Shown one piece after another: positions 19,444-64,000 of a stretch of DNA of 64,000 bases. Every line of letters begins with the position of its first letter. Position 1 is the first letter of the stretch. A program made the translations under genes and the position numbers. Origin of the DNA: Rudaea sp. 3F27F6. Lineage in GTDB: Bacteria; Pseudomonadota; Gammaproteobacteria; Xanthomonadales; Rhodanobacteraceae. Where the stretch lies: NCBI RefSeq assembly GCF_005503555.1, contig NZ_SCNG01000008.1:1-64000 (forward strand), read 5' to 3'. The notes under the pieces are model-generated. The model had not been told where the DNA came from and did not search any database. It saw nothing but the letters and a program-made list of their open reading frames with translations.

Positions 19444-20646
19444 TCAGTTCGATTCAGTGAATTGGATGTATCCCGCCGTCGTCGCAGTGGGCGCAGCCGC
19501 AGTACAAGGGCCCAGGGTCAGGTTGTTGTATTCCCCGGTCTCGCCCTTGCTCAAACATGTCGGCGTGTTGAGGGTCCCGTCGCTGACCTTGACCTGCACG
19601 GTGAGAGACGATCCCGAATTGAACGTTGCTTGAGGAGAACCGGCGTCCAATCCGAATATATTGAACTCCGTCTGGTTCCACGTCGCGCCAATGTCGGCAG
19701 TGTTGCCATTCTGAGTTACCGCCTTTGCGGTTGTACCATAGGTAAAGGTCACTGCGTCATTGCCGCTGATCGAGGCGGAGCCTGACAACACCACCTTGCC
19801 GAGATCGGCATATGCAACATTGCTGGCGGCTACACCAGCACTGTTCTTGGCGCATCCGATGTACTGGTTGCCGCCGAAGGTGTAGGCGCCGACGCTTGCT
19901 GCATTGGCCCATCCATTTGGGCAATTGTATACATAGGTTTGAGTACCGAAACAGAAACCAAAGAAGTTGAAGCCACTACACTGCGTTGTGGCAGGAATAT
20001 AAATCCAGTTTTGAATATACGCCTGAGCTCCCACAACACCTGTATCGAGGCCGGAAACTCCAGACGCATCGTAGTTGGAGCCATAAATAAACTGTTCCCA
20101 GGTATAGCAGCTGGGATAACCCAAGCTTGAACAAAAAGTCGATGTGCCAGGACTCAGATTCGTATTGATCTGCAGGGAATAGTCGCCGGTACTCGCCGAA
20201 GTCACGCCCGTAACTGTCGGAAAACTGCCGGTCGCAGATTGGGTCAGGCCCGACGTCTGCGCCATATAGTCAGTTCCGTTACCTGTCGTTCCCGCAACGC
20301 TGCCCACCCCTGTCGATGTTCCTGCAGTGCTTTCGTCGGATTGCACAGCGCTACCAGCCGCCCCTTGCCTAGGCAATTGTGAAGGCCTAATCGCCGGCAC
20401 GGGTACGCAGGGCTCCGCTTCCCAAGTCATCTCTGGATAAGTCGCATGAAAGCAGCCCTCCTCCAGCGGCGGGAATGCTTTGAGGTTTTCATGCCATGCG
20501 TGCAGCGCTTCGGACGTTGGACTCACGGCGACACCATGATAAGCCTCCGTCGCACCAGCCGGCGTCAGTGCAAACAGACTCATTGAACTGATGGCACATG
20601 CAACGGTGAGCACGCAGCGTTTCCTGGACTTCGCATTCGACTTCAT
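19444..20646 (-). CDS. Conserved secreted protein of unknown function, copy 1
   Basis: The 400-residue protein has a signal peptide ending LTPAGA (residues 23-28). It belongs to a group of bacterial secreted proteins typified by EGCFHATYP near the mature N-terminus, TGSFPTVTGVTS, a YTWEQFIYG block and a Cys-containing QNWIYIPAT region. It ends GEYNNLTLGPC and IQFTESN. The fold is probably beta-rich. It is a paralogue of the product of 47944-49044; the signal peptide and first 60 residues are nearly the same and the middle differs. ATG 20646 follows AGGAGAGAG. The frame is open to 20784, but that extension lacks a ribosome site. Function is unknown. Confidence 0.85.
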   Translation of the reverse strand: MKSNAKSRKRCVLTVACAISSMSLFALTPAGATEAYHGVAVSPTSEALHAWHENLKAFPPLEEGCFHATYPEMTWEAEPCVPVPAIRPSQLPRQGAAGSAVQSDESTAGTSTGVGSVAGTTGNGTDYMAQTSGLTQSATGSFPTVTGVTSASTGDYSLQINTNLSPGTSTFCSSLGYPSCYTWEQFIYGSNYDASGVSGLDTGVVGAQAYIQNWIYIPATTQCSGFNFFGFCFGTQTYVYNCPNGWANAASVGAYTFGGNQYIGCAKNSAGVAASNVAYADLGKVVLSGSASISGNDAVTFTYGTTAKAVTQNGNTADIGATWNQTEFNIFGLDAGSPQATFNSGSSLTVQVKVSDGTLNTPTCLSKGETGEYNNLTLGPCTAAAPTATTAGYIQFTESN

Positions 20647-20848
20647 GCATCTCTCTCCTAGAGTAAGTGTGATAAGACACGCCACTTCCTCGCGCGGCGC
20701 GCAGCAACCACGACATCGGCAGACCCCGAACACGCACGATCCCGCGTCGAAAAAATTCGACGCGCGACCGATAACCCGAAACACGAGGGTTATGTACGCT
20801 AAACGGCTGACGAAACCTTCAGGGAAATCGGACGACTCGATTTCTTAT
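20644..20848 (-). repeat. Conserved 5' leader, copy 1
   Basis: These roughly 200 bases upstream of the secreted-protein start match 49042-49247 almost base for base. They include the ribosome site and a 7-bp inverted repeat ATAACCC/GGGTTAT (20771-20793). Its 9-base loop is largely different in the other copy, while both stem arms are unchanged. This suggests a regulatory hairpin or protein-binding site, or a recent duplication. Confidence 0.8.
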
Positions 20849-47943: not shown

Positions 47944-49044
47944 TCAGTTCGACTGAGTGAACTGAATGTAAGGCGACGAACCACCCGCAGCAGTGCAGGC
48001 GCCCAAGGTCAAGTTGTTTTGTTCGTAAGTTTCGCCAGCTCCGGTCGGACCCGTGCAGGTCGGAGCGCGGGTGGTGCCGTCATTGACCTCCACTTTCACC
48101 GTAAGCGACGAACCCTTGTTAAACGAGACCACGGGGGACGTGCTGCCGTTGCCGAACACGTTGAATTCGGATTTATTCCAGGTAGATCCTATATCGAGCG
48201 TACTACCTTTCTGGCTGACGGACTTTACGGTCGTGCCATAAGTGAACGTGACCACGTCGTTGCCGCTCGTCGATGCCGAACCCGACAGCTTCGCTTTTGC
48301 CAAATCAGATAAAGCGACGGTACTCACGGTTACCGCGGCACTGTTCTTGACGCAGCCGCCGCCGGCAACGGAACGCGTCCAACCGCTCGGGCATCTTTTC
48401 GGCAGTGGGAATATCCAATTCTGTATGAATATCGCAGCCGGGCCTGGTGTAACGTTGGGACCTGCCGAAGCGTAGATAAATTGCTGCCACGTCGTGCAAT
48501 TGGAGATGCTGTAGCCCTTGCACAAAGCCGCCGGGCCGGCGCTATTGTTGGTATTGATCTGCAGCGTATATGCGTCCGTGCTCGCAGATGTTACGCCCGT
48601 CACCGTGGGGAAGCTGCCGGTTGTCGACCCGAATGTACCGGAAGTCTTCGCAGCGTAGTCGTAACCGTTGCCGACGGTCTGGAACACTGCGCCGTCTGCG
48701 GCACTCACCACGTCGCTTGTCTCCGAGTTCGTACCGGCCGCTACCGTGGCGCTACCTTTTCCAATCTGTGCGGGCGGTATCGACTCATACGTTGGTGGGG
48801 GCAGACATTCTTCTTGTTCCCAGACTAGGCTCGGATAATTTGCGTGAAAGCAGCCTTCTTCCATCGGCGGGAATGCTTTGAGGTTTTCATGCCATGCGTG
48901 CAGTGCCTCAGACGTTGGACCCACGGCGACACCGTGATAGGCCTCCGCCGCGCCGGCCGGCGTCAGTGCAAACAGACTCATTGAACCGATGGCGCATGCA
49001 ACGGTGAGCACACAACGTTTCGCGAACTTCGCATTCGACTTCAT
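47944..49044 (-). CDS. Conserved secreted protein of unknown function, copy 2
   Basis: The 366-residue paralogue of the product of 19444-20646 shares the signal peptide (LTPAGAAEAYHG) and EALHAWHENLKAFPP. It also shares EGCFHANYP, TGSFPTVTGVTS, WQQFIYA, SGSASTSGNDVVTFTYGT and the end IQFTQSN. The part around residues 50-90 differs and is shorter. AGGAGAGAG precedes ATG 49044; the whole leader up to about 49247 is nearly identical to that of copy 1. Function unknown; probably exported and beta-rich. The two copies are some 28 kb apart in the same orientation. Confidence 0.85.
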   Translation of the reverse strand: MKSNAKFAKRCVLTVACAIGSMSLFALTPAGAAEAYHGVAVGPTSEALHAWHENLKAFPPMEEGCFHANYPSLVWEQEECLPPPTYESIPPAQIGKGSATVAAGTNSETSDVVSAADGAVFQTVGNGYDYAAKTSGTFGSTTGSFPTVTGVTSASTDAYTLQINTNNSAGPAALCKGYSISNCTTWQQFIYASAGPNVTPGPAAIFIQNWIFPLPKRCPSGWTRSVAGGGCVKNSAAVTVSTVALSDLAKAKLSGSASTSGNDVVTFTYGTTVKSVSQKGSTLDIGSTWNKSEFNVFGNGSTSPVVSFNKGSSLTVKVEVNDGTTRAPTCTGPTGAGETYEQNNLTLGACTAAGGSSPYIQFTQSN

Positions 49045-49247
49045 GCATCTCTCTCCTAGAGTAAGTGCGATAAGACACGCCACTTCCCCGCGCGGCGCGC
49101 AGCAACCACGACATCGACAGACCCCGAACACGCACGATCCCGCGTCGAAAAAAAATCGGCGCACGACCGATAACCCAAAATATGTGGGTTATGTACGCTA
49201 AACGGCCGACAAAGCCTTCACGGAAATCGGACGGCACGATTTCTTGT
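49042..49247 (-). repeat. Conserved 5' leader, copy 2
   Basis: This matches 20644-20848 closely. The 7-bp inverted repeat ATAACCC/GGGTTAT is at 49170-49192, about 126 bases upstream of the start codon as in copy 1, while its 9-base loop differs. Confidence 0.8.
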
Positions 49248-50685: not shown

Positions 50686-51358
50686 TCAGCGCATGCAAAT
50701 CCCGTTTTTGCAACGCGTGTTAGGCGAGGCTTTGACGAATGCCGCCCACGCCATCTCGGCTTGCGGCGCAAGCCGAAAACCGTGCGCGAACGCCAGCGGC
50801 CAAAAGAAATGCGAGTAAGAGCAGCCGCTACCTACCGGAAATTCAGAGCTCTCATCACACGCCGCGAACGTCACGGATAGATCCTTCGCATCGCGGATAT
50901 TTTCGAATTCGTACAGCTCACTCGTGTAGCGCACATCCAGATCCGAACGCGCATTCGTAATTAGCGTATCGCGCAAAATGAGAAGCTCCTGCTGGCCGAA
51001 CATCACCACCGTGACACGGCAATCGCGGCGCACCAGCCAGTTAATAATCGCCTTGAGCCAACACAACTCCAGCTCGTTGATTTCCTGGGCCTCGTCAATG
51101 ATGAAGAACAAATGCCCGCGCGGGGCGGCGTACGCATAGAGCGCTCGTAAAGTCTGGTCACGCTTATGGCAATACGGCTCGAGCGCCCGCCACCCGAAAG
51201 GTTTGCCATCGCCCGCCAGTGCCACACATCGGTTTAGTGCCCGCAGAAGCTGCTCATAAGTGACCTTGTACCTCGCCAACGCCTCCTTCATTGGCTCCCA
51301 GCCCAGGTACTTCTGAATCAATTCCCTCAAGCGGGTGTAGAGGGCGAGATCGCGGCCA
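50686..51358 (-). pseudogene. Truncated TniB/ExeA-like AAA ATPase
   Basis: The frame retains Walker B (HLFFIIDEAQEI), a sensor-1-like VTVVMFGQQEL and the C-terminal GSGCSYSHFFWPLAFAHGFRLA segment seen in transposon-associated AAA ATPases of the TniB/AAA_22 sort. The N-terminal part with Walker A is absent. At about 51358 the sequence switches abruptly into an IS3-type orfA, so the ATPase frame is continuous only with out-of-frame transposase codons. It is therefore taken as a dead fragment of a larger transposon. Confidence 0.7.
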
Positions 51359-51640
51359 ATCGCAGCCGTGCGTTCTCCTGTTCCAGGTCCTTCAATCGCT
51401 TGGCTTGATCGACCTTCAAGCCGCCGTATTCCTTGCACCAACGAAAGTAGCTTTGCTCGGTCACGCCGAGCTGGCGAGCAATATCGGCAACGGTGCGTCC
51501 CTGCGCCGAGAGCACTTCGGCCTCGCGCAGCTTGTGGATGATCTCTTCGGCGTTAAAGCGTTTCTTGGGCATGGTCCAAATCTCCTCGTTCTCAGTTTAA
51601 GAACTTTCGATCTGGACTAGGTGTTCCAAGTCAGGTCAAG
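51359..51640 (-). mobile_element. IS3-family insertion sequence, left end with truncated orfA
   Basis: The minus-strand orfA starts at 51572 after GAGGAG and reads MPKKRFNAEEIIHKLREAEV, QGRTVADIARQLGVTEQSYFRWCKEYGGLKVDQAKRLKDLEQENARLR. This is the helix-turn-helix and leucine-zipper part of IS3 transposase subunit A. The homology ends at about 51359, and a short foreign tail closes the frame at 51327. orfB is missing. The probable terminal sequence TGACCTGACTTGGAACACC (minus strand) overlaps the last codons of the methyltransferase gene. Confidence 0.85.
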
Positions 51641-52659
51641 GCCGTCAACAAATACCCCACCTCCAGGCCTGTCGAGTCGACGTTCAGGCTCGTGGTGTCC
51701 TTTGCGGTGACCGCGTATCCCGCATCGTGAAAGATGCTTTCCCATTCACTCGGGGTCAGCAATTTCTGGTTCGTGAAGTAGTGCAGGAGGTAGTACGGGT
51801 TGTAGTAAGCCTTGGCGAGGCCGTGCTGCATGATCCCGGGTGTCGCGATCTGATCGTCGACCTCGATCACCGCGATGGCCGATTTCGGGCAGCTCTTGCG
51901 AATGGTCGAGAGAAAACGGACCACCTCTTCCCTGCCGCGCTGACCCATGATTTCGTGCAAGACGAAACCGAGGATGAACAGGTCGGGCTTGTTCTCAGAA
52001 GGCCTGGTGACCCACTCCGCCGCGTCCGCACAAATGATCTCCACTCGATCACTCATGTTGCGGGATGCAATGTATTCCCGAGCGACCAAGCAGCTGCTTT
52101 CATTGGGCTCGATGCCGATGGTCTTGATCCCGGCGAAGTATTCACAGAACTCGATGAGGTACATGCCGTTACCGCAGCCCATGTCGCAGATGGTCGCGGG
52201 GGGAGAACTCATTTTTTGAATCAACTTCTTGGTGAGTGGAAAAGCGTCGTAGTGGCTGATTCCACAACTTCCCACTCCAACACTGACGATCTCTCTTCGA
52301 GCCACTCCGGAGCCGGACTTCAATTTGTCTCCGATCTCGAGAAAGGTGCCACCGTAGCCGCCGACGAGCATCGTGTACCAGGCTCGAAACTGCTCCAGAT
52401 CCTTGCCCCTTTCGCTCAGCTCGAAAAGCTCATCTTCCTGAGCCAAGATGTTCTCGTTGACGAGATACATCAGGAATCCGTAGACCCGCGCCTTGTCGAG
52501 CCCGATCTCGTCAGAAATTCCATTAACGCAGGATTTCCTGGAGCGCAATACATCGTAGATTCCACTCGAGAAGAGATGGTGGATGCTGCTTGCCAGGACG
52601 AACTGTCGGATGGGCTGGATTCCCTCGACCAGCTTCGATTCGAAATCGCTCGTGATCAT
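51631..52659 (-). CDS. SAM-dependent methyltransferase, probable alpha-keto-acid C-methyltransferase
   Basis: The 342-residue protein has an N-terminal helical dimerisation domain (residues 1-125) and a Rossmann domain with CDMGCGNGMYLIEF (158-171) and IGIEPNESS. His235 (LHEIMGQRG), His279 (MQHGLAKAYY) and His293 (LLHYFTNQK) lie where MppJ-type enzymes place metal-binding histidines. Size and pattern recall the group that beta-methylates phenylpyruvate, 2-ketoarginine, 2-ketoleucine or 2-oxoglutarate (MppJ, MrsA, SgvM, GlmT). The neighbouring aminotransferase fits such a pathway. The substrate is not fixed. The stop codon lies in the presumed IS3 end, so the last residues may have changed. 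GAGG precedes the ATG. Confidence 0.75.
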   Translation of the reverse strand: MITSDFESKLVEGIQPIRQFVLASSIHHLFSSGIYDVLRSRKSCVNGISDEIGLDKARVYGFLMYLVNENILAQEDELFELSERGKDLEQFRAWYTMLVGGYGGTFLEIGDKLKSGSGVARREIVSVGVGSCGISHYDAFPLTKKLIQKMSSPPATICDMGCGNGMYLIEFCEYFAGIKTIGIEPNESSCLVAREYIASRNMSDRVEIICADAAEWVTRPSENKPDLFILGFVLHEIMGQRGREEVVRFLSTIRKSCPKSAIAVIEVDDQIATPGIMQHGLAKAYYNPYYLLHYFTNQKLLTPSEWESIFHDAGYAVTAKDTTSLNVDSTGLEVGYLLTALT

Positions 52660-52758
52660 ATTTTGTGTACCTCAGAATTGTTGCGGCATTGATTGGTAGG
52701 CCGACTCCACTCGGGGTCTGTCGAATGAACTGTGTAACTGCATTTCATTAGAGCGCAC

Positions 52759-52960
52759 CTAACGGGACAGGCGAACCTGGCGCTTGGGCACCAACTGCGG
52801 TTTGAACGTGCCGTCGCGATCGCGTGGCGTATCAGTCTGCAGATCGCCAATCGAACTCTGCACGATCTTTCGGCTCTTGCCGTTGCGCGGATTGACACCA
52901 GACTTCTGATGGCGCTCATGGCCGAATCGCCTTCGATAAAGCCATCTGTGTGCTCCTCGC
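52759..52960 (-). mobile_element. IS256-family transposase remnant
   Basis: The minus strand reads RRRFGHERHQKSGVNPRNGKSRK, IGDLQTDTPRDRDGTFKPQLVPKRQVRLSR, a highly typical block near the N-terminus of mutator/IS256 transposases. It ends at a stop at 52759, and neither the catalytic part nor full ends remain. It lies between the methyltransferase and aminotransferase genes. Apart from this the 343-base gap shows only the promoter-proximal region of the methyltransferase gene. Confidence 0.85.
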
Positions 52961-53002
52961 GGCTTCGCCGTAGTTTCTCGGGGAGCAAATACGCAGTTCA
53001 AA

Positions 53003-54025
53003 TTACAGACTCTCCACTCGGGGCCCACGCAAGTGGTTCCCGGCTTCAAACGCGTTGTGAATCTTTGCGATCGCGGAGATCAGCCGATCGTTCTGGCTCT
53101 CGAGGCCGATGGAAACTCGTAGATAGTCCGGCAACCCGAGCGGCCCGGCATCCTTGACCAGGATGTTTTCCTCCTGAAGTCGTTCTTGATAGGAACGACC
53201 ATTTGTCTTGATCAGGAGGAAATTCGTTTCGGTGTTTCTGATACCGATGCCGATGGCTTCGAGCTCTCGAAACACCCGGTTCCTTTCCTTCACGTCGGCA
53301 CAGGCGCGTTCCATGAAGAAAGCCTCGTTCTTGAGGGCGCTTTCGATGAGCGCCAACGATACGGTGCCCAATGCACAGTAGCCTCCCAACTTTCGCAGCC
53401 CGCCGATCTCGTGCTTGGGCCCCACCACGACTCCCAGCCTGAATCCGGCCAGTCCATAAGCCTTCGACAGGGAATGATAGGTGAGCTGATTCTTCTCCAA
53501 CGGCGACAGGTTCTTCCGTTGTGAGTAGTGCCGGTAAGTGCGGTCAAGAAACAGGATTCCACATGCGTTGCGAATTTCTTCGAGATCGCGCTGAGACGCC
53601 GAAATGCCCGTCGGGTTGGATGGATTGGCGATCAGCACCACATCCGACTTGCAGAACTTCTTGATGTCGTTCCGATCGATGGTGAAATCGTCGGGACGCA
53701 ATGTAATGGCCAAAGTGTTGTCCGCGAACAGCTTGAGCCGCTGCCAATACCCATCGAAGCCGGGCTTCATGTAAATGAAGCGCATGTGCCTGAAATGGCG
53801 CGCCATCCGATCGACGCAATCATCGACTCCGTTCGTGAAGAGAACGCACTCGGGTTCTACGCCGTAGAAGTTCGCCGCGAACGCCGTGACTTGTTGCTCG
53901 TACCCGATCGGATATCGGGAACTCGCGGCCAACGCGTCTTGAATGTCGTCGAGCAGAAATCGCGGCATCTCGTGCGGAGATTCATTCAGGTGATGCCGGG
54001 AAGCTGAATTCATGAACGTCATCAT
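53003..54025 (-). CDS. PLP-dependent class I/II aminotransferase, HisC-like
   Basis: The 340-residue protein has the type I fold. Visible elements are TNGVDD, the NPSNPTG motif (134-140), an Asp161/Tyr164 pair (FLDRTY), the PLP lysine Lys188 in YHSLSKAYGLAGFRLG, and the substrate-carboxylate arginine in LRVSIG. It is most like histidinol-phosphate aminotransferase. In this NRPS cluster, next to a probable keto-acid C-methyltransferase, it would interconvert an amino acid and its keto acid. GGAGAAG precedes the double ATG (54025 or 54022). It begins 31 bases after the second permease gene. Confidence 0.85.
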   Translation of the reverse strand: MMTFMNSASRHHLNESPHEMPRFLLDDIQDALAASSRYPIGYEQQVTAFAANFYGVEPECVLFTNGVDDCVDRMARHFRHMRFIYMKPGFDGYWQRLKLFADNTLAITLRPDDFTIDRNDIKKFCKSDVVLIANPSNPTGISASQRDLEEIRNACGILFLDRTYRHYSQRKNLSPLEKNQLTYHSLSKAYGLAGFRLGVVVGPKHEIGGLRKLGGYCALGTVSLALIESALKNEAFFMERACADVKERNRVFRELEAIGIGIRNTETNFLLIKTNGRSYQERLQEENILVKDAGPLGLPDYLRVSIGLESQNDRLISAIAKIHNAFEAGNHLRGPRVESL

Positions 54026-54056
54026 TTTTCTTCTCCAACACTTTGATCTTCGCGAG

Positions 54057-55301
54057 TCATTCGTAGCGCAACGATTCGATCGGATTCAGGCGCGCTGCTT
54101 TTCGCGCCGGTATCACGCCGAACGTCAGGCCGACGAGACTGCAGAAAATCATTCCGTAAAAAGCCCAGGCCAACGGTACGGTGGCCTTGAGCGAGGTGAT
54201 CAACGCCAAAACATTTCCGAGACCGAAGCCGATCGCGATGCCAATCACGCCACCGATATTGCAGAGCACCGCCGCTTCGAGCAGAAACTGTCGCAGCACG
54301 TCTTTGCGCTTGGCGCCGAGCGCCATGCGGATGCCGATTTCCCGGGTCCGCTCGGTCACGGACACCAACATGATGTTCATGATCCCGACACCGGCGACCA
54401 GCAACGAGACGGTGCCGATGACGAACGCGCCGAGCTTGAGCCCGACGGTGATCTTCTTGAAATTCTCGATGGCGCTCTGATTGGTGAAGTAATAGAAATT
54501 GTCGTCGTCGTGCGGCTTCAAATGACGCAGGCGTCGCAGGGTCATTCGCGCTTCTTCGATTGCATCCAGCAGCACTTCCGGACTCCTGGCGTGCAACGTG
54601 ACATTGACCGAGCGCGGCACACCTTGGGAGTCGTCGTTGCCGTAGACGCTGGTGAACGCCGATATCGGAATTAGCGCCATGGCCTCGAAGCGGCTGCTGA
54701 ACGCCGACACCTTTTTCGTGAAGACGCCGATGACTTCGTACTTCTGCCCATCCAACAGAATTTTCTTTCCGATCGGATCGAGGTACGGGAAGAGTTCATT
54801 CGCGAGCGCGTGGCCCAGCACCACGACTTTTCGTCCCGCCATCAGGTCGACGCGGGAAAGATTGCGACCCGACTCGATCGCATGCGCGTTGACTTCGGGA
54901 TATTCCGGCGTCCCGCCGCAGATGAACACGCTGGCCTCCGCGGAGCTTCCATTGTAGGAAGCGCTCCTGCCGTCCTCCCAGAGTTCGATGCCGACGGCGT
55001 CGATCAGCTTGGCGTTCTCACGAATGGCGCGGGCTTCGGATTGCGTGACGGCGGGCCAGTATTTGGAGGCAGCCAACTGCTCTTCGCTCGCGAAACCCTT
55101 TGGCAATCTTTGCAGCCGGAACGTTTGCGCTCCGAAAACCGTTATCTCCGACTCGATGGATCTCTGAATCGCGGCAACGGCAGTCATTACCGCGATAATC
55201 GAGGCAACGCCCAGGATGACGCCAACCAACGTCAGCGATGAGCGCAGCTTGTTGTCACGGATCGCATTCAGCGCCATGAACAAGGTCTCACTAATTTGCA
55301 T
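54057..55301 (-). CDS. MacB-type ABC transporter permease (second)
   Basis: The 414-residue protein has one N-terminal membrane helix (RSSLTLVGVILGVASIIAVMT) and a large periplasmic MacB-PCD-like domain. Three C-terminal helices form an FtsX-type domain ([31 protein letters not shown]). It ends with the usual ARKAARLNPIESLRYE. This is a MacB permease without its own ATPase domain. It pairs with the preceding permease, which differs in sequence, to form a likely heterodimer driven by the ATPase at 56555. Confidence 0.9.
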   Translation of the reverse strand: MQISETLFMALNAIRDNKLRSSLTLVGVILGVASIIAVMTAVAAIQRSIESEITVFGAQTFRLQRLPKGFASEEQLAASKYWPAVTQSEARAIRENAKLIDAVGIELWEDGRSASYNGSSAEASVFICGGTPEYPEVNAHAIESGRNLSRVDLMAGRKVVVLGHALANELFPYLDPIGKKILLDGQKYEVIGVFTKKVSAFSSRFEAMALIPISAFTSVYGNDDSQGVPRSVNVTLHARSPEVLLDAIEEARMTLRRLRHLKPHDDDNFYYFTNQSAIENFKKITVGLKLGAFVIGTVSLLVAGVGIMNIMLVSVTERTREIGIRMALGAKRKDVLRQFLLEAAVLCNIGGVIGIAIGFGLGNVLALITSLKATVPLAWAFYGMIFCSLVGLTFGVIPARKAARLNPIESLRYE

Positions 55302-55319
55302 TAGTCAGCTCCGCGAAGT

Positions 55320-56558
55320 TCATTCGTAACGCAACGCCTCGATTGGATTCAAATATGCGCCCTGTATAGCAGGCAGCAACCCAGAGCAGACGCCGACCAG
55401 AGTGGCGATGAACAAGGAACTGAGAAAAATTCCCGGCGACAAACTGACGGGCATGGTGGGTTCGTCGGCCAGTTGGGCAATTCCCCAGGAAAACCCTACG
55501 CCGATCAATCCACCGAACAAACAGATCAATGCCGACTCGAACAGGAACTGCAGCAATATGCTGCGCCGCTTCGCGCCGATGGATTTGCGGATGCCGATTT
55601 CCCTGGTGCGTTCCTTCACCGAGACGAACATGATGTTCATCACGCCGACTCCGCCAACGAACAGCGCGATGCCCGTGATGAGCGATCCCACCAGTACGAC
55701 GACGCCGATCGTGTTGTTGTACGACGTGAGGAGCGAGTCCAACGTGCTGATGGAAAAGTCATCCGGCTGACCGGGACGCAGGCCTCGAATCCTGCGCATC
55801 GCATCGGTCACTTCGTACTGAAAATCGTCAATCGATTCGAGTGAGGGCGCCTTGACGGCGATGTCGACGTTCGCGCGACCGGACGGATTGCCGAACACTT
55901 TCTCGAACGTGGTGATCGGGATGTATATCTGACGGTCGAAGTCCGGACCGTCGAAGAAGCCGTTGGTCCGCTTGCCCATGACGCCGATGACACGGAAATT
56001 CCTTTCGCCAATCTGAAAGGTTTTGCCGAGGGGCTCGAGGTTTCCGAACAACCCTTCAGCCACGGTGGCGCCCAGCACCGTGACGTCGAACTTGTTCTGC
56101 TCGTCGAACGGCAGGAGAAAACGTCCGCGCTCCGGTATCAGATCGGAGAGCTGGCTCTCTTTGTCCGTCGTGCCGATGACCGTGATTCCGGTCATCTTGC
56201 TGGCGAAAAAACGGGCGGATTGATCGATGCTGATACTCGGCACCACGATGGCCCTGCCCTCGAGACGAGTCGCCAGAGCGCGGCTCTGATGCAGGTCAAG
56301 ATTTCGCCGGGTCCGATATTGCGCGCCGGAACTCAGATCGACCCAGGGAGTTCTGGACACGTAAAGAACATCGGCGCCGCCAGAAGCGAACGACTGCCGG
56401 AATACGTTCTGCATGGTGTTGGCCGCGATCATCGTCGTGGTGACGGCCACGATGCCGATGATGACGCCCAACGCGGTCAACGCACCGCGCGACTTGTTGG
56501 CGATGACCGCGCTCCATGCAATCCTGGCGGCCTCGGCGATGTCGATTTGTACCTTCAC
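55320..56558 (-). CDS. MacB-type ABC transporter permease (first)
   Basis: The 412-residue protein has the same layout as the next gene. There is an N-terminal helix ([21 protein letters not shown]), a periplasmic domain (about 50-280), then three helices with [32 protein letters not shown] and the ending [12 protein letters not shown]. Its ATG overlaps the ATPase stop by four bases, and 18 bases separate it from the second permease. Export of the cluster product is the likely role. Confidence 0.9.
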
Positions 56559-57277
56559 GATAGTGTTCGCCTGCGGTCGCTTTCGATCAATCCGTCCTTC
56601 AGGCGCACCACGCGCTGAGCGTGCGCTGCGATGTCCTCTTCGTGGGTAACGACGACGATGGTGTTTCCCTGGCGGTGCAGGGTATCGAACAGCGCCATGA
56701 TTTCTTCGCTGGTCGTGCTGTCCAGATTTCCGGTCGGCTCATCCGCCAAAATCAGTGACGGCTTGCACACGAGAGCGCGTGCAATCGCCACGCGTTGCCG
56801 CTGACCGCCGGATAGTTCGTTCGGCTTGTGCTTCATCCGGTCGCGAAGACCGACTGACTCGATCGCGCCTTCCGCGAGAACCCGTCGCTCCGCTTTGGAC
56901 ACTCCCTTGTAGATCAGCGGCAGTTCGACATTCTTGAAGACGGAAATTCGCGGCACGAGATTGAAGGTCTGGAATACGAAGCCGATCTTCCTGTTGCGGA
57001 TTTCAGCCAGCGCATCGTCGTTCAACTTGCCCACCATCTGCCCGTCTAGCTGGTAGGTACCCGACGTCGGCACATCCAGGCAGCCGATCATGTTCATGAG
57101 CGTGGATTTTCCCGAGCCCGACGAACCCATGATGGCGACGTACTCGTTGTTGCTGACGCGCAGCGAAACACCGCGCAGCGCCTGAACGGTCTCATCGCCC
57201 AGTTGATATGACTTGGTCACGTTGTCGATCTGCAGCAGCGCCTGCTGCGCATCTACCATGTTGGCGTCCGTAGTCAT
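56555..57277 (-). CDS. MacB/LolD-type ABC transporter ATPase
   Basis: The 240-residue ATPase has Walker A GSSGSGKS (51-58), the Q-loop FVFQTFNL, signature LSGGQ (155-159), Walker B LILADEP (175-181) and the H-loop VVVTHEED. Stretches such as [16 protein letters not shown] are typical of the MacB/LolD branch. ATG 57277 lies 10 bases after the adaptor stop; ATG 57259 is possible. It overlaps the first permease gene by ATGA. It would power the two permeases. Confidence 0.92.
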
Positions 57278-57287
57278 CTGCGTGGTT

Positions 57288-58532
57288 TCAGGAGCCGGCC
57301 ACTGGGCCTTTCTTGGCGACCTCGACGGTATCGCCGTCATTCAAGTCACGAGTGATCGCGCGGTAACTTCCCGAAACCACGTTCTCACCTTCTTTCAACC
57401 CGTCGAGAATCTCGATTCGATCCTCGTTCTGGATGCCGACCTTCACCTGACGAGCGACGGCCTTGCCGTTTTCCACGACATACACGAGCTGCACATAGCC
57501 ATCCGTATCGACGATGGGCTTGCTACTCGAGGATTCGCTGTCGATCCGCCGCCATTTCGCCACCGGCCGCAAGGTCACCGATTGAATCGGCACGCTCAAC
57601 GCGGACTGCCGCGTATCCGTCAGAATGTTGGCGTTGACCGTCATTCCCGGTCGCACCTGACCACCGCCCTCGGTAATCGCCACCTTCACGCGGAATTCCG
57701 TCTTCTGCAGTACTTCGCCTGGATCCGCCGTGCGCGCGCTGGACGCGACTTCCGCCACGCGACCCACGATCGCGGCTCCTGGAAGCGCGTCGACCGAGAG
57801 CGTGGCGGGCTGGCCAATCTTCACCTTCATGATGCTGTTCTCGTCGACGTTCACCGTGGCTTCCATCTGGCCCAGGTCGGCGACGATCATGATGACGTCT
57901 TCCTGGAACTGGGAACCGATCACGATCTCCCCCGCCTCTCGCTTCAACACACTGACGGTGCCGGACATAGGCGAAAAGATGCGCGTCAGGGCCTGGTCGT
58001 ACCTGGCTTGCTCGAGCTCACCCTCCGCCTTTTTGATTTGCTCCACGGCAGACGAATAGCGGGCCGCTGCCACTTCGTAAGCGCTCGTAGCGGTATCCAC
58101 TCTATCGCGGGATTCCAACTGCCGCGCGAACACAAGCTTGACGCGTTCGAGTTGACTCTCGGCGAGCTTCTTGTTAGCCAGAGCGAGCCTGGCTTCATCC
58201 TGGGCGGATTTCACTAACGCTTCCTGGCTCGCCAGACTGGCCGCTTGTCGCGTGCCGTCCAGTTCGACCAGCAGTTGCCCCTTCTTCACCTGATCGCCTT
58301 CCTTGACGTGCAAACGCGTGATCTTCGCGCTGATGTCGGCGCTGATCTTCACTTGAATGGATGACTGGATCTTTCCCGTCGCACGAACCCTCTGCTCGAT
58401 GGTTGCCCGTTGAGCCAGCTCCACCTGAACCGGAAGTGCATCCTCTTTGTTGATGCTTTTCCTCAACACAAGCAGGCTCAGGCCGACGATCAGGACAACC
58501 GCAGCGATGACTAGCTTCTTCACGGTGAGCAC
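57288..58532 (-). CDS. MacA-like periplasmic adaptor protein
   Basis: The 414-residue protein has an N-terminal membrane anchor ([17 protein letters not shown]) and two lipoyl halves ([26 protein letters not shown] and [19 protein letters not shown]). These flank a helical hairpin (about 100-190), followed by beta-barrel and membrane-proximal domains. It links the MacB-type transporter to an outer-membrane channel; no channel gene is in this part of the window. The start is GTG (58532, or 58523) without a clear ribosome site, so the exact N-terminus is uncertain. Confidence 0.88.
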
Positions 58533-58650
58533 ATCGGTAATTGGGAGAAATTGTTCATGGCGAAGACTCTGATTTCGGTTGACATGGGATCAGTCGAGGA
58601 TGTTGAGAGCGGGCGAGAGCCCAAGGGGTTGCGCGGCGCGTCCTATGAGT
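58533..58650. other. Short gap inside the NRPS cluster
   Basis: The 118 bases between the dioxygenase stop and the adaptor start contain no ORF. They might carry an internal promoter, since the adaptor lacks a good ribosome site, but no clear motif was seen. Confidence 0.3.
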
Positions 58651-59655
58651 TCATGGCCGGGTCTCCACGCTATCGGCATCGATGGAACGCGCCATGCCCA
58701 CCAGCACTTGCCGATCGCCGACGAACGAATCGCGGCCATGCGAATAGAGCATGTTGTCCAGCAGCAATAGATCGTTTCGCTGCCAGTCGAAGCGTATGGC
58801 GTGACGCTGGTAGATGTTCCGGATGAGCACCAGGTCCGAAGTCGCGATGGGCGCGCCGTCTCCGTAGTAGGTGTTGCGCGGCAAATCCGCTTCGTCCACC
58901 GTGGCGAGCAGATTCCTCTGCAGTTCTTCATCCAGGTTGGACACGTGGAACAAATCCGCCTGGTTGAACCAGACCTGCGCGCCGGTGACCGGATGGCGGA
59001 TGCTGGCCTGATTGATTTGCCGGGTACGCAGCCGATTGCCGTCCAGCCACTCATGGCTGATCTGGTTGGCCTGACAGAACCGCTCGACCTCATGGCGCTC
59101 CTCGGTCTGAAAGACGTCGTTCCAGTGAACGTCGATATCGGAATAGTTGCGGACGTACATCACGCCATCCCGTTCGAAGCGATCGCGAATCGCATCCGGA
59201 ATCTGCTGGTACACGAGTTCACTGTTGCAGATCGGCGTTGCGCCACCCTGCTCCGACGGTACGGTGCACAGGAAACCGAGGCGCATCGCCCAACGATTGC
59301 CGTAGGCATTTTCGTTGTGCTGGGGAATCTGCAGCGAAGGATGGTATTCCGTGGCCGTGTAGACGTTTCCTCGCAATTGCGTTCTGGGCGTCGACCGGTA
59401 CACGTATTCCAGGAGCTCCGCGCCGAACAACGTTGCGAGCGCGACTCCGAATTGCTGGCTGCCGGCGAATTTCAGTCCGCGGATCAAGAGCGCGCCGTTG
59501 GCTTGCAGCAATCGCTCCACATGCTCGTGGTTTTCCGTCGCCCACTCGGCCACCCGGGCGGAACCCTGATCGACGTGGAGCAGCAAGCGTGTGCCCTGAA
59601 TCGAATCCAGATCGTCAACGGACACGTCGGATAAGTCGGTGATCGTTTTAGTCAT
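58651..59655 (-). CDS. SyrP/TauD-type Fe(II)/2-oxoglutarate dioxygenase
   Basis: The 334-residue protein has the jelly-roll oxygenase motif HxE at His113/Glu115 (PQHNENAYGNRW). The distal His is near 306 (LDNMLYSHGRDSF), and an Arg a few residues on (GDRQVLVGMAR) would bind 2-oxoglutarate. The LLLLDNMLYSHGR and GDRQVLVGMAR wording is shared with SyrP-type enzymes that beta-hydroxylate amino acids in NRPS pathways. ATG 59655 overlaps the NRPS stop (ATGACTAA) and follows GGAAGAAG, so translation is coupled. It may hydroxylate a carrier-bound residue or the free building block. Confidence 0.88.
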   Translation of the reverse strand: MTKTITDLSDVSVDDLDSIQGTRLLLHVDQGSARVAEWATENHEHVERLLQANGALLIRGLKFAGSQQFGVALATLFGAELLEYVYRSTPRTQLRGNVYTATEYHPSLQIPQHNENAYGNRWAMRLGFLCTVPSEQGGATPICNSELVYQQIPDAIRDRFERDGVMYVRNYSDIDVHWNDVFQTEERHEVERFCQANQISHEWLDGNRLRTRQINQASIRHPVTGAQVWFNQADLFHVSNLDEELQRNLLATVDEADLPRNTYYGDGAPIATSDLVLIRNIYQRHAIRFDWQRNDLLLLDNMLYSHGRDSFVGDRQVLVGMARSIDADSVETRP

Positions 59656-62600
59656 GGACTTCTTCCGCATGAACTTTTTCGGCAAATACCTTTATATGTG
59701 TCTTCTCAACCGGGTTGCCGAGCTGTCGCAATCGAGCCAGGAAGTCGGTGCGGAGCTCGCTCATCCGCTCCGCGCTGAAATGTCGGCGATCGAATTCGAT
59801 GCTGCCGTCGATGCCGTCGCCATCGTCGCCGGAAATCGCCAATTTGACGGCGTAGGCGAATCGATCGGATGCGTAACGAACCTTGAGCTCGCCTATCTCG
59901 TGCTCGCCCGACTTGCCGGATCCGGTCTTCGCGTTGTGGAAATTCACGTAGTTGAATGCCGCGTAGGTCATCGACTCGACATCGATGAGCTTGCGCACGC
60001 GGTCGGCGGGAAACAGGGAATGCGCGTCCATGGTTAGCAGTTTTCGCGCGGTCGCGGCGATTGCTTCGGCGTCGCTCTGATGCGCCGACAACCGAGTGCA
60101 GATGGGCAGCAGACTCCAGAACAAGCCGATCGCTCCCAGCGGATCGCTGAGGCGTGGAGAACGACCGCTGCACACGACGTCCACGGTAACCGTGTCGACC
60201 GTCAACAGATTCCCGAGCGCCCGTTGGTAGGCCAGCAGCAACAGAGTTTTCAACGTCACGCCCTGCTGTTCTGCGTGGTGCTTGAGCCCGCTGACCAGTG
60301 CGGCGTCGACGTGCAGACCCAGCGTGTTGCTCGCGCTCGCATCCGTCGCGATCGAATCCAGCGCGGGCATTGGCTGGTAGTCCGTTATGAGTTCACGCCA
60401 GGCCTGTTGGTGATCCGCGAAGGTTTGCGCTTCCCGTTCCAACGCGACGTGTTCCTTGAACACGTTCCCAGACGCGGGTGTGCGCAGCGTCGCTCGTTCC
60501 TGATCCGACTCCTGGTACAGCGCCATCAGCTCGTTGCGCAGTTCCACCAGCGCCCAACCGTCGATGATCGCGTGGTGCGTGGAGATGAACAGGCCATGGT
60601 TCCGCTTGCCATAGACGAGCAACGTGAACCGGATGCCCGTCTCGCCCAGCACGAACGGCCGGTCCTGCGCGATCAGGTTCGCGACCGCCTTCTCTTGCGC
60701 CGCGGAGTTCAGCTCCGACAGATCGACCACCGCAAGGTGGAAGTCGACGCCCTTCAGCACCACCTGAATATGCTCGCCGCTTTCCATGCGATGGAATCGG
60801 GTGCGCAGTACGGGATGCTTGTAGAGCAGATGGCGCAATGCGGCTTCCAGGTGCGCTGGTTCCAGCACGATGCCGTCGATGTCGTAGATGACACGCGGCT
60901 GATAGACCGCCTGTTCCAGACCGTGCGTACCGTGTTGTTCCAACATGCGCTGCTGCATGGCCGTAACGGGGTAGCAATCTTCCACGGTCTCATCCATGAA
61001 AGGCGATGCATCGAATGCACCCGTCAACAAGTGCAGAGGCACCGGCTCGACGAGCACACGCGATCCGCGTTGAATTGCGGCCAGCTCGGCAATGGTCTGA
61101 TGGAAAAAGATATCTTTCACATCGAGCACGATACCCACGGCTTGCGCCCGCTTCACGATCTGCACGACCCGGATCGAATCACCACCCACGGCGAAGAAGT
61201 TGTCTCGAATGCCAATTTTTTCGACCCCCAGCACGTCTTGCCAGACTGCGCAGAGCTGCGTCTCCATCGGCGTCATCGGCGCGACGTACTCCGCGCGTGC
61301 CACACGCGTTTCCGCCATCGAAAGCAACGCGCGCCGATCGATCTTGCCGTTCTCGGTCAGCGGAATACGCTCGAGCACGACGAAGATCGAAGGCACCATG
61401 TACGGCGGCAAGACCGAGAGCAGATGTTTGCGCAATGAGTTGGGCAAATGCTCGTCGTCCCGATTCGGCAAGACGTAGGCGACCAATCGCTGTTCGCCAC
61501 CGCGATCACCAACAAGCAGCACCACGCACTCCTTCACGTGACTGCTGTTGAGCAGCTCATGCTCGATTTCGCCCAGCTCGATGCGGAAACCCCGCAACTT
61601 GGCCTGATGATCGATGCGGCCGAGGTATTCCAGTTCACCGGCGGTGGTCCAGCGCACCAGGTCGCCGGTGCGATAGAGGCGCTGCCCCGCTCCGCCGAAG
61701 GGGCTGTCGATGAAGCGCTCGCGGTTGAGTTCCGGACGATTCAAGTAGCCTCGCGACACTCCGCCACCGCCCACGAACAGTTCGCCGGGCACGCCGATGG
61801 GTTGCAACGACATCGCCTCGTTGCACACATGGCAGAGCAGGTCGCGCAACGGCACACCGATGACGCTCGAAGGTTTGCCCACGTCAGTAGTCCGAATCCG
61901 TCGATAGGTGACGTGCACTGTCGTTTCGGTGATGCCGTACATGTTGATGAGCTGTGGCTGCTCATCTCCGTAACGCGTGAGCCACGGCCGCAGTCGCGGC
62001 GGATCCAGCGCTTCCCCGCCGAAGACGACATAGCGCAGGTGATCCAGTTCGCCCGCCTGCTGAGCCTCCTTGATGAGCAGATAGAAAGCCGAAGGCGTCT
62101 GATTTAGCACCGTCACCCGTTGTTCTTTCAGCAGCCGATGGAAATCGGGCGCGGAACGGGAGATTGCATAGGGCACGACGACGAGACGCCCGCCGTACAA
62201 CAGCGCGCCCCAGATTTCCCAGACGGAGAAATCGAATGCATAGGAATGGAACAGGGTCCAGCAATCGTTGTGATCGAAGCTGAAATGCTCGGCACTGCTG
62301 TCGAACAGGCGTACGACGTGGCCGTGCTCGACCACGACGCCCTTGGGCTTGCCGGTGGAACCGGAGGTGTAGATCACGTACGCCGCATGCGCGCTCGTGA
62401 CCGCGGTATCCTGGAGGTCCATCGCCGAACACCGGGCAATGCCTTCTGCGTGCCCGGACGCGTCCAAGTGCAGTACTTGCGCAGTGGTGGACGGCAACCG
62501 GGACTGGAGATCCTGGTGCGTGATGATCCAGGTGACGCCGGAGTCATCGAGCATGTGCCGTGTGCGGGCAGCAGGATTGTACGTATCCATCGGCACATAC

Positions 62601-64000
62601 GCGGCGCCGGCCTTGAGGACCGCGAGGATGCTGACGACCATGTCCACCGAGCGCTCGACGAAGAGACCGACGAAGTCGCCCGTCCGCACACCGGACGTCC
62701 GCAAGTAGTTTGCCAGCCGGTTTGCGCGTTCGTTCAGTTCGCGATAACTCAGCCGAATGCCTTCGTGAATCAGCGCGACGTTGTCTGGCCAGCGCGCCAC
62801 TTGCTGCTGGAAGAGCCGATGCAGGCAAACTACCGGCGCCGCCCCGGTCACCGCCCGCGCCGCTTGCGCGGCGAAGAAACGCTGGTCGCTTTCCGTCACC
62901 ACGGACAGCTGGCCAAGCGGTTTTTCCGGGGCCGCGACCACCGCCTCGAGCAGGAGCACATAGTGCTGCGCCAGGCTGGCAACCGTTTCGGCGTCGAAGA
63001 TATCGGTGCTGTAACTCCACTCGACTTCATGGCCGTCGACGCCCGGCCCAACCTGCACCGACAACTCGAACTTCGCCAGCGATTGCTCGCGCGCGACTCC
63101 CGAGACCTGAACTCCAGGCAAGGACAGATCGGTCTGCATCTGGTTTTGCAGCGAGAACAGGATCTGGAACAGCGGCGAGTGATTGAAGTTGCGCTCCGGA
63201 CAGAAACGATCGACCAGCATCTCGAACGGCACATCCTGGTGTTCGAAAGCCTCCAGCACCGTGACCCGGGACGCCTCCAGGAATTCGGCGAACGACTGTT
63301 CCGTGTTTAACCGGCTGCGCAACACCAGGTTGTTGACGAAGAAACCGATCAGCGGAGCCAGCTCCTTGCGAGTGCGACCCGCGATGGGCGTGCCGACCAC
63401 GATGTCGTTCTCGCGACTCCAGCGTCCCAGCAGCACGGCGAACGCGGCGTGCAGCACCATGAAGAGAGTGGCGGCCTGTGTCTGGCCCAATTCATTCAGT
63501 TGTTGCACCAGCGCCGAATCGAGCGGCACCGTGAGCGCCTTGCCGACGAAGCTCGGCTGCAGCGCACGCGGCCGATCCAGGATCAGGCCATGCACGGGCG
63601 GAATGCCGGCGAGCTGCTTTTGCCAGTAGTTCAACTGTTCTTCGAGGTAGTCGCCTCGAATGTGCGAACGCTGCCAAGCGGCGAAGTCGGCGTACTGGAT
63701 TGCGAGTGGCGGAAGCGGACTCGATTGACCCTGGACGAACGCCGCGTACAACTGGACGAGCTCTTCCATGAGCACGCTCATGGACCAGCCGTCGGAAGCG
63801 ATGTGATGCATGTTGAACAGCAGCACATGAGTCTTGGCGTTCAGGGCGATGAGGCTGACGCGCACCATCAGGTCCTGGTCGAGGCGGAAAGGCGTGAGGG
63901 CATCCATCTCGGCAAGACGCAGAACTTCCGCCTCTCGTTCTTCTTCCGGCAGTCCAGACAGATCGAAGCGCGCCAGCGGCAGCATGTCGACCGGCAAGAT
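59648..64000 (-). CDS. Nonribosomal peptide synthetase, C-terminal part (C-A-T-C), Thr-predicted
   Basis: The frame is open at the right edge, giving about 1450 visible residues. The order is a condensation domain with HHIASDGWS (near residue 64), then an adenylation domain with YTSGSTGKPKGVV, FDFSVWEIWG and NGKIDR. A carrier domain with GGDSIRVV (near 937) and a last condensation-type domain with HHAIIDGW (near 1138) follow. The protein ends without a thioesterase or reductase. Specificity-pocket residues read D, F, W, N, V, G, M, V, H, K, the known threonine code. The terminal C domain keeps its HHxxxDG motif, so it may join the chain to a further amine or carrier. Other modules lie off the window. 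It leads the minus-strand cluster down to 51631. Confidence 0.95.
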   Translation of the reverse strand: MLPVDMLPLARFDLSGLPEEEREAEVLRLAEMDALTPFRLDQDLMVRVSLIALNAKTHVLLFNMHHIASDGWSMSVLMEELVQLYAAFVQGQSSPLPPLAIQYADFAAWQRSHIRGDYLEEQLNYWQKQLAGIPPVHGLILDRPRALQPSFVGKALTVPLDSALVQQLNELGQTQAATLFMVLHAAFAVLLGRWSRENDIVVGTPIAGRTRKELAPLIGFFVNNLVLRSRLNTEQSFAEFLEASRVTVLEAFEHQDVPFEMLVDRFCPERNFNHSPLFQILFSLQNQMQTDLSLPGVQVSGVAREQSLAKFELSVQVGPGVDGHEVEWSYSTDIFDAETVASLAQHYVLLLEAVVAAPEKPLGQLSVVTESDQRFFAAQAARAVTGAAPVVCLHRLFQQQVARWPDNVALIHEGIRLSYRELNERANRLANYLRTSGVRTGDFVGLFVERSVDMVVSILAVLKAGAAYVPMDTYNPAARTRHMLDDSGVTWIITHQDLQSRLPSTTAQVLHLDASGHAEGIARCSAMDLQDTAVTSAHAAYVIYTSGSTGKPKGVVVEHGHVVRLFDSSAEHFSFDHNDCWTLFHSYAFDFSVWEIWGALLYGGRLVVVPYAISRSAPDFHRLLKEQRVTVLNQTPSAFYLLIKEAQQAGELDHLRYVVFGGEALDPPRLRPWLTRYGDEQPQLINMYGITETTVHVTYRRIRTTDVGKPSSVIGVPLRDLLCHVCNEAMSLQPIGVPGELFVGGGGVSRGYLNRPELNRERFIDSPFGGAGQRLYRTGDLVRWTTAGELEYLGRIDHQAKLRGFRIELGEIEHELLNSSHVKECVVLLVGDRGGEQRLVAYVLPNRDDEHLPNSLRKHLLSVLPPYMVPSIFVVLERIPLTENGKIDRRALLSMAETRVARAEYVAPMTPMETQLCAVWQDVLGVEKIGIRDNFFAVGGDSIRVVQIVKRAQAVGIVLDVKDIFFHQTIAELAAIQRGSRVLVEPVPLHLLTGAFDASPFMDETVEDCYPVTAMQQRMLEQHGTHGLEQAVYQPRVIYDIDGIVLEPAHLEAALRHLLYKHPVLRTRFHRMESGEHIQVVLKGVDFHLAVVDLSELNSAAQEKAVANLIAQDRPFVLGETGIRFTLLVYGKRNHGLFISTHHAIIDGWALVELRNELMALYQESDQERATLRTPASGNVFKEHVALEREAQTFADHQQAWRELITDYQPMPALDSIATDASASNTLGLHVDAALVSGLKHHAEQQGVTLKTLLLLAYQRALGNLLTVDTVTVDVVCSGRSPRLSDPLGAIGLFWSLLPICTRLSAHQSDAEAIAATARKLLTMDAHSLFPADRVRKLIDVESMTYAAFNYVNFHNAKTGSGKSGEHEIGELKVRYASDRFAYAVKLAISGDDGDGIDGSIEFDRRHFSAERMSELRTDFLARLRQLGNPVEKTHIKVFAEKVHAEEVHD

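What the first reader, a model, noticed from the sequence alone, without database searches (positions are those of the whole stretch)
51631..64000. NRPS cluster combining Thr module, SyrP-like hydroxylase, beta-methyl amino acid pair and split MacB exporter
Seen: eight genes on one strand, most spaced by a few bases or overlapping. They are NRPS, dioxygenase, adaptor, ATPase, two permeases, aminotransferase and methyltransferase. Known: each family occurs in peptide natural-product pathways. Inference: the product is a peptide with threonine (perhaps hydroxylated) and a beta-methylated residue, exported by a MacAB-like pump. I do not recognise this combination as a described pathway.
Basis: partly seen in the sequence, partly recalled or inferred. 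Interest (0 to 1): 0.85.

Follow-up and report, generated by a model that had tools for sequence, protein, structure and literature searches.

The report
Chlorinated-peptide gene cluster with missing loaders
A bacterium carries a large, apparently transferable gene cluster that should build a chlorine-bearing peptide, in which three stations of the assembly line have lost their own amino-acid loader and are probably fed by one separate shuttle system.

Summary
The observed genes are real, but the window cuts the cluster. It continues to about 107-108 kb of the same contig: three NRPSs, 11 modules. Upstream lies a four-gene cassette: Cys-nucleophile acyltransferase (SyrC type), stand-alone Val-coded A domain, stand-alone T, SyrB2-type HxA halogenase. 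Three modules have no usable A domain (two keep C-terminal remnants, one none); their T domains resemble each other and those of a related cluster's A-less modules. Best reading: (chloro)valine made on the stand-alone T is delivered in trans to these modules, as SyrC does once, at the last module, in syringomycin. The 'beta-methyl pair' is sharpened to a 2-ketoarginine methyltransferase (MrsA family), so 3-methylarginine. Cyclic-peptide-class exporter, acylase and split MacB suggest export and maturation of an acylated precursor. The same cluster (85-97% DNA identity in 17 genes compared) sits in Xanthomonas sp. Leaf131, of another family, with unrelated flanks: recent transfer. One A-domain core differs between the copies by a swap. 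A new variant, not a new kind. Product, chlorination and trans-loading are inferred, not shown.

The parts
51631..52659 (-). 2-ketoarginine (3-methylarginine) methyltransferase, MrsA family
   Evidence: TIGR04543 436 bits vs cut-off 425; PDB 2-ketoarginine methyltransferase 329.7 bits vs MppJ 43
53003..54025 (-). class I/II PLP aminotransferase (hisC-like, below hisC cut-off), presumed partner of the methyltransferase
   Evidence: PF00155; TIGR01141 173.6 bits vs cut-off 276.55
54057..55301 (-). MacB-type permease 2
   Evidence: MacB_PCD + FtsX
55320..56558 (-). MacB-type permease 1
   Evidence: MacB_PCD + FtsX
56555..57340 (-). MacB-type ATPase, separate chain
   Evidence: ABC_tran; best NCBIfam is the ATPase part of MacB, 268.6 bits, below its cut-off 966
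57288..58532 (-). MacA-like periplasmic adaptor
   Evidence: HlyD_D23; RND_mfp 146 bits over cut-off 94.9
58651..59685 (-). TauD/SyrP-type 2OG dioxygenase, HxE at residues 123-125
   Evidence: PF02668; HNE
59648..64000 (-). 3' part of NRPS3 (whole gene C15 59648-71323): rest of last C domain, A(Thr), T, terminal C-like domain; no TE. The parts right of 64000 are listed with contig coordinates in the Full report section
61325..62812 (-). A domain of last module, Thr code DFWNVGMVH
61076..61255 (-). T domain of last module
59651..61051 (-). terminal condensation-like domain, nearest solved relatives McyA and AmbE
   Evidence: motif comparison
51327..51572 (-). IS3-type transposase OrfA-like ORF abutting the cluster's left edge
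   Evidence: PF01527

Best explanation
A mobile NRPS pathway for a chlorinated peptide. The stand-alone A domain activates valine and loads it on the stand-alone T. The SyrB2-type halogenase chlorinates it there. The Cys-type acyltransferase carries the (chloro)valyl group to the T domains of the three modules that have lost their A domain (N2m4, N3m2, N3m3). The other eight modules load their own residues in cis, among them Gly (with a built-in monooxygenase), an Asp-like residue (probable target of the TauD/SyrP-type enzyme), probably 3-methylarginine, and a final Thr, which the terminal CmodAA-like domain may dehydrate. The first C domain has no upstream T, so the chain is probably N-acylated; the exporter, acylase and split MacB would export, deacylate and expel it. 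Shown: architecture, families, active-site motifs, pocket codes, missing A domains, near-identity of the cluster across two families. Inferred: substrates, chlorination, trans-delivery, order of steps, product.
For: Halogenase: TIGR01762 466 bits, aligned over residues 1-303 of 305 with SyrB2, HxA included. Shuttle: GxCSG in all 16 hydrolase homologues found in the 19 nearest loci (3 loci gave none) and GxCGG in 51 of 52 in the remaining loci. A code Val/aliphatic-type in 19 of 19 nearest loci, Thr-type in 53 of 57 readable remaining ones; DAFWLGGTFK = Val and DFWNVGMVHK = Thr in a table of PMC9113097 (passage). Three A-less modules of 11 here and three of 8 in G003, whose NRPSs also follow hydrolase-A-T-halogenase-acylase-ABC. 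T motif [AVT]VRL[EA]F in these 6 A-less modules and in 0 of 166 modules not called A-less (1 of 166 with the looser VRL[EA]F). On the tree of 177 T domains the six need 2 changes against all others, 0 of 500 shuffles as low; on a careful tree of 31 T domains of four clusters, nine A-less or dead-A rows plus one A-bearing row (G002) form one group, support 89/91. Their C domains need 4 changes. A T domain not used in the profile, behind a degenerate A in G002, scores 99 bits; apart from the A-less rows and their Leaf131 counterparts the next is 84. Precedent for SyrC feeding one A-less module: PMC8949500 (passages).
Against: The T motif was chosen after seeing the sequences; T trees are short (63-64 columns) and no support for the A-less group reaches the starred level. 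G002 has a T of this type behind an A domain with all four core motifs, so the type does not strictly mean A-less. In the 11 other cassette-bearing module sets only 3 of 95 modules were A-less by the same rule and none of those had the motif, so the cassette alone does not predict A-less modules (these are fixed stretches and some are cut). Nothing shows that one shuttle serves all three sites. No product is known.
Confidence: 0.66

Rival explanations
1. The A-less T domains are loaded by ordinary A domains of the same synthetase, one A serving several T domains (recalled from yersiniabactin-type synthetases); the chlorovaline cassette feeds only one site or makes a separate residue.
For: A-bearing modules lie next to or near each A-less module; the cassette occurs without A-less modules in most other clusters examined (3 of 95 modules).
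Against: The A-less T domains are of a type nearly absent from the 166 other modules, and a dedicated shuttle, T and A are in the same gene string.
Confidence: 0.17
2. The A-less modules are dead or skipped relics: the product is shorter (eight residues).
For: Remnants shrink from 154 to 86 to 0 model positions, as in decay; G002 carries a full-length A-like stretch scored only 176 bits, with core motifs I judged lost by eye.
Against: The C and T domains around the remnants keep HHxxxD and GGxS, and NRPS2 and NRPS3 are about 89-93% identical in amino acids to Leaf131 in another family; free decay would not spare them.
Confidence: 0.12
3. The halogenase is only a step towards another group (for example a ring closure or unsaturation), so the final peptide has no chlorine.
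For: Halogenation followed by ring closure is known for CmaB/KtzD-type pathways (recalled).
Against: No gene of the string has a family that I recognise as a ring-closing partner.
Confidence: 0.15

Closest known systems
Syringomycin synthetase (SyrB1/SyrB2/SyrC/SyrE/SyrP/SyrD)
   Same: Separate A and T, HxA halogenase, Cys-type shuttle, an A-less C-T module, TauD-type hydroxylase, SyrD-class exporter.
   Different: Val instead of Thr code; A and T on separate chains; three A-less modules, two of them adjacent and none at the last position, instead of one final one; no TE; adds acylase, MacB, 2-ketoarginine methyltransferase, luciferase-like insert in a Gly-like A.
Bactobolin halogenated-valine genes of Burkholderia (recalled; no held paper has bactobolin, halogenase and valine together)
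   Same: Discrete Val activation and SyrB2-type chlorination, from memory.
   Different: Small polyketide-peptide hybrid rather than an 11-module NRPS; not compared by sequence here.
MrsA/3-methylarginine pathway of Pseudomonas syringae
   Same: 2-ketoarginine methyltransferase beside an aminotransferase (the latter recalled).
   Different: There a free amino acid (mentioned in passages of PMC3656897; the original paper is not held); here inside an NRPS gene string.
Pyoverdine maturation and export (PvdE, PvdQ, PvdRT; recalled)
   Same: Cyclic-peptide-class ABC, acylase of the same superfamily, MacAB-type pump.
   Different: Acylase far below the PvdQ cut-off; MacB split into three chains; siderophore genes were not looked for.
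CmodAA (dehydrating) condensation domains (AmbE, McyA, Crz1-C2)
   Same: AmbE and McyA are the nearest solved relatives of the terminal domain; DG and the Lys of [K/R]SVLLAAH kept.
   Different: Motif His is Tyr; sits at the very end of the synthetase with no downstream T.

Membership tests
SyrB2-type non-haem Fe/2OG halogenase | HxA in place of HxD/E, overall SyrB2 homology, over curated cut-off | tested here: met
SyrB2-type non-haem Fe/2OG halogenase | chlorination of a carrier-bound amino acid | not testable with these tools
   needs enzyme assay
SyrC/CmaE-type aminoacyltransferase | alpha/beta hydrolase with Cys nucleophile beside SyrB1/SyrB2-like genes | tested here: met
   GYCSG at 99-103; GxCSG in 16 of 16 homologues found in 19 loci; TEII control is GHSFG; that SyrC/CmaE use Cys is recalled
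SyrC/CmaE-type aminoacyltransferase | T-to-T shuttle activity | not testable with these tools
   needs assay
Syringomycin family | Thr-specific stand-alone A | tested here: not met
   Val code DAFWLGGTF
Syringomycin family | C-T module without A | tested here: met
   three modules
Syringomycin family | C-terminal TE | tested here: not met
   terminal C-like domain, separate TEII only
2-ketoarginine methyltransferase (MrsA) | over TIGR04543 cut-off; nearest solved structure the 2-ketoarginine enzyme, not MppJ | tested here: met
   436 vs 425 bits
CmodAA dehydrating C domain | [K/R]SVLLAAH Lys/Arg | tested here: met
   KTLLLLAY; consensus from PMC11342130 passages
CmodAA dehydrating C domain | His of [K/R]SVLLAAH (48 of 50 in the paper) | tested here: not met
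   Tyr in G000, Leaf131 and G003
CmodAA dehydrating C domain | nearest to AmbE/McyA rather than ordinary C | tested here: inconclusive
   McyA 107, AmbE 100, next 68 bits, unlike two other C domains of the cluster; G003 terminal: McyA 106, BacC 88, AmbE 76
MacAB exporter | adaptor + ATPase + MacB_PCD/FtsX permease | tested here: met
   ATPase and two permeases on separate chains, so below the fused-MacB cut-off
PvdQ acylase | PvdQ equivalog cut-off | tested here: not met
   56 of 950 bits; superfamily PF01804 met
TIGR01194 cyclic peptide exporter | curated cut-off | tested here: met
   350 vs 286 bits

The most novel reading that the evidence does not exclude
One halogenation shuttle feeds several internal, even adjacent, A-less modules of a single assembly line, recognised through a dedicated T-domain type; cis A domains then became dispensable and eroded stepwise (degenerate, then C-terminal remnant, then absent), giving a peptide with up to three chlorinated valines.
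Probability: 0.45. Interest if true: 0.72.

Novelty: new variant of a known kind. Interest (0 to 1): 0.62.

Why it matters
If right, it generalises the single syringomycin exception into a programmable principle: one modified monomer routed to chosen internal positions by T-domain identity. The decay series of A domains and the natural A-core swap between two near-identical clusters are direct guides to NRPS engineering. The product would be a chlorinated, probably methylarginine-containing peptide for which the text searches found no description.

Tried and rejected
Rejected: MppJ-type beta-methylaromatic methyltransferase (43 bits against 330 for the 2-ketoarginine enzyme). Rejected: chloro-threonine by simple analogy with SyrB1 (code is Val). 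Rejected: 'the cassette predicts A-less modules in general' (3 of 95 in the other sets); some modules that look A-poor have an inserted domain instead (PLP-decarboxylase-like insert in G006 and G013). Corrected: the support of 92 printed sets the six A-less T domains only against five other A-less ones; against all 171 others they need 2 changes, because a G002 module with an intact A falls among them. Rejected as probable assembly fault: an extra A-domain stretch inside module N3m3 of Leaf131; the only three N's of the fetched stretch lie in it and it interrupts the T domain. Pocket codes searched in papers: of six only DAFWLGGTF was found. Not resolved: which A domain takes methylarginine. 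DVQDVAAVY looks like the Pro codes DVQYVAHVV of PMC9113097 but with Asp at 278; DMDSIGTVT resembles basic-residue codes from memory; a module next to another 2-ketoarginine methyltransferase in G697 reads DLKDIGMAE. In one search the A domain taken was the best same-strand hit within 4.5 kb of the halogenase, which need not be its partner (the two Ser-type reads of L034 and L078 probably are not). The rpoB protein identity printed (61%) came from the longest ORF of any frame and is not used.
Full report
What is there. The window is C15:1-64000 of a 5.7-Mb genome. The cluster runs on, on the same strand, to 107.2 kb, or 108.1 kb if the phosphopantetheinyl transferase belongs. Of the 20 junctions between the 21 genes listed, 14 are overlaps or gaps of 55 bp or less; the largest are 343 and 197 bp (starts are the first possible ones).

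Parts right of the window, all on the minus strand, in contig C15 coordinates, which continue the window numbering: NRPS3 59648-71323; A-less T domains N3m3 64271-64459, N3m2 65972-66160 and N2m4 77384-77572; DUF6817 protein 71408-72028 and CPA2-like transporter 72084-73259; type II thioesterase 73329-74114, GHSFG; NRPS2 74111-91690 and NRPS1 91695-98180; PF10014 2OG-Fe dioxygenase 98191-99063; cyclic-peptide-class ABC exporter 99066-100838 (TIGR01194 350 vs 286 bits); penicillin-acylase superfamily hydrolase 100846-103362; halogenase 103560-104477 (TIGR01762 466 vs 226 bits); stand-alone T 104532-104789; stand-alone A 104822-106351; SyrC-type acyltransferase 106341-107180; phosphopantetheinyl transferase 107322-108131 (no tblastn hit beside the Leaf131 copy).

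Assembly line. My A/C/T profiles and Pfam give NRPS1 C-A-T-C-A-T; NRPS2 C-A-T-C-A-T-C-A(luciferase-like insert)-T-E-C-a-T-C-A-T; NRPS3 C-A-T-C-a-T-C-T-C-A-T-C (the E domain read by eye from HHLIIDGISWR). Eleven modules; three have no usable A domain: N2m4 keeps 154 of 497 model positions (two pieces, 314-346 and 377-497), N3m2 keeps 86 (320-405), N3m3 none, with 39 residues between C and T. Pocket codes in order: DVQDVAAVY, DAFFLGGTF, DSTSAGEVA, DVQDVAAVY, DILQLGMIW, A-less, DMDSIGTVT, DIPRVGHVG, A-less, A-less, DFWNVGMVH. The Val meaning of DAFWLGGTF and the Thr meaning of DFWNVGMVH are from PMC9113097 (passage); Gly for DILQLG and Asp-like for DIPRVGHVG are recalled.

Halogenation cassette. 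Hydrolase, A, T and halogenase lie in that order. The halogenase aligns with SyrB2 over residues 1-303 of 305, including WHQAD. The hydrolase has GYCSG; the 16 homologues found in the 19 nearest loci all have GxCSG. Among the 80 best loci of 225 that the scan confirmed, the 19 nearest have a Val/aliphatic-type code (15 exactly DAFWLGGTF); of the other 61, 57 gave a readable code: 53 Thr-type, 2 Ser-type, 2 DAFFLGVTF. So this is a sister branch of the syringomycin cassette with a different amino acid.

A-less modules. In 13 cassette-bearing module sets (four more had no C-x-T module), 9 of 114 modules are A-less; in ten NRPS regions of the same genomes chosen as background, 2 of 63, both in G010, whose background stretch adjoins its cassette cluster. 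The nine are three here, three in G003, two in G013 and one in G010. The six of G000 and G003 carry a T motif [AVT]VRL[EA]F that none of 166 other modules has; with VRL[EA]F one of 166 has it, a G002 module with an intact A. On the tree of 177 T domains the six need 2 changes against all others (0 of 500 shuffles as low). On a careful tree of 31 T domains from G000, Leaf131, G003 and G002, nine A-less or dead-A rows and that one G002 row form a group, support 89/91, not starred. Their C domains need 4 changes, starred branches forcing 3. In G002, which has the same cassette and acylase, a T scoring 99 bits with the A-less profile, not used to build it, follows an A domain whose core motifs I judge lost. 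I read this as loss of cis A domains after trans supply arose; the intact G002 case shows that the T type is older than the loss or has another role.

Tailoring and export. The methyltransferase passes the 2-ketoarginine cut-off narrowly (436 vs 425) but is far closer to the solved 2-ketoarginine enzyme than to MppJ. Over cut-off it was found in 1 of 233 genomes of the family (this one), 1 of 17 cassette genomes (Leaf131) and 2 of 369 of the class (this one and G697). The ABC exporter passes TIGR01194. The acylase is a penicillin-acylase superfamily member, not PvdQ (56 of 950 bits). The terminal domain resembles McyA and AmbE C domains most, unlike two other C domains of the cluster; the G003 counterpart is less clear. 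It keeps the Lys and lacks the His of the CmodAA motif (motif from PMC11342130 passages). Dehydration of the final Thr is therefore only a suggestion.

Transfer and swap. Xanthomonas sp. Leaf131 holds the same cluster: 17 genes compared at 85-97% DNA identity (NRPS1, NRPS3 and the stand-alone T were not in that comparison), the rpoB locus 82%. Leaf131 is G454, labelled as another family of the same order (same rpoB place as G001). The 6.6 kb left of the cluster have no match in the Leaf131 stretch, the 4.8 kb right of it only 67 bp. An IS3 OrfA-like ORF abuts the left edge. Within NRPS2 module 2, about 0.87 kb of the A core is 90-100% identical to NRPS1 module 1 and 29-83% to Leaf131 (windows of 30 bp), while the sides match Leaf131 at 83-100% in all but one window; the code differs, DATKVGEVG in Leaf131 and DVQDVAAVY here. 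This looks like a natural A-core swap.

Prior art. Review PMC8949500 (passages) describes SyrE's ninth module as A-less and fed by SyrB1/SyrC, and albicidin-type trans-complementation. I found no paper joining these features in Xanthomonas or with chlorovaline (listings); subscription papers and MIBiG were not searched.

Verdict. A real, well-preserved, laterally moved NRPS pathway; a new variant of the syringomycin trans-loading principle.

Noticed in passing
C15 74111-91690 (NRPS2 module 2), outside window: About 0.87-kb A-core swap from NRPS1 module 1 relative to Leaf131, changing the pocket code.
   Followed up: yes
C15, NRPS2 module 3, outside window: Luciferase-like monooxygenase inserted in an A domain with a Gly-like code, followed by an E domain; could give an oxidised glycine.
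   Followed up: partly
L113 877-5550 (+), L131 13436-18172 (-): PLP-decarboxylase-like domain inserted in an A domain right beside the halogenase in G006 and G013 (Massilia).
   Followed up: no
   Followed up: partly
window 19444-20784 and 47944-49164: Two ORFs that share a similar N-terminal stretch (seen); the second has no Pfam hit, the first was not scanned.
   Followed up: no
L015 about 5919-6962: IS3-type transposase-like ORF upstream of the cluster in Leaf131 (family recognised by eye).
   Followed up: no
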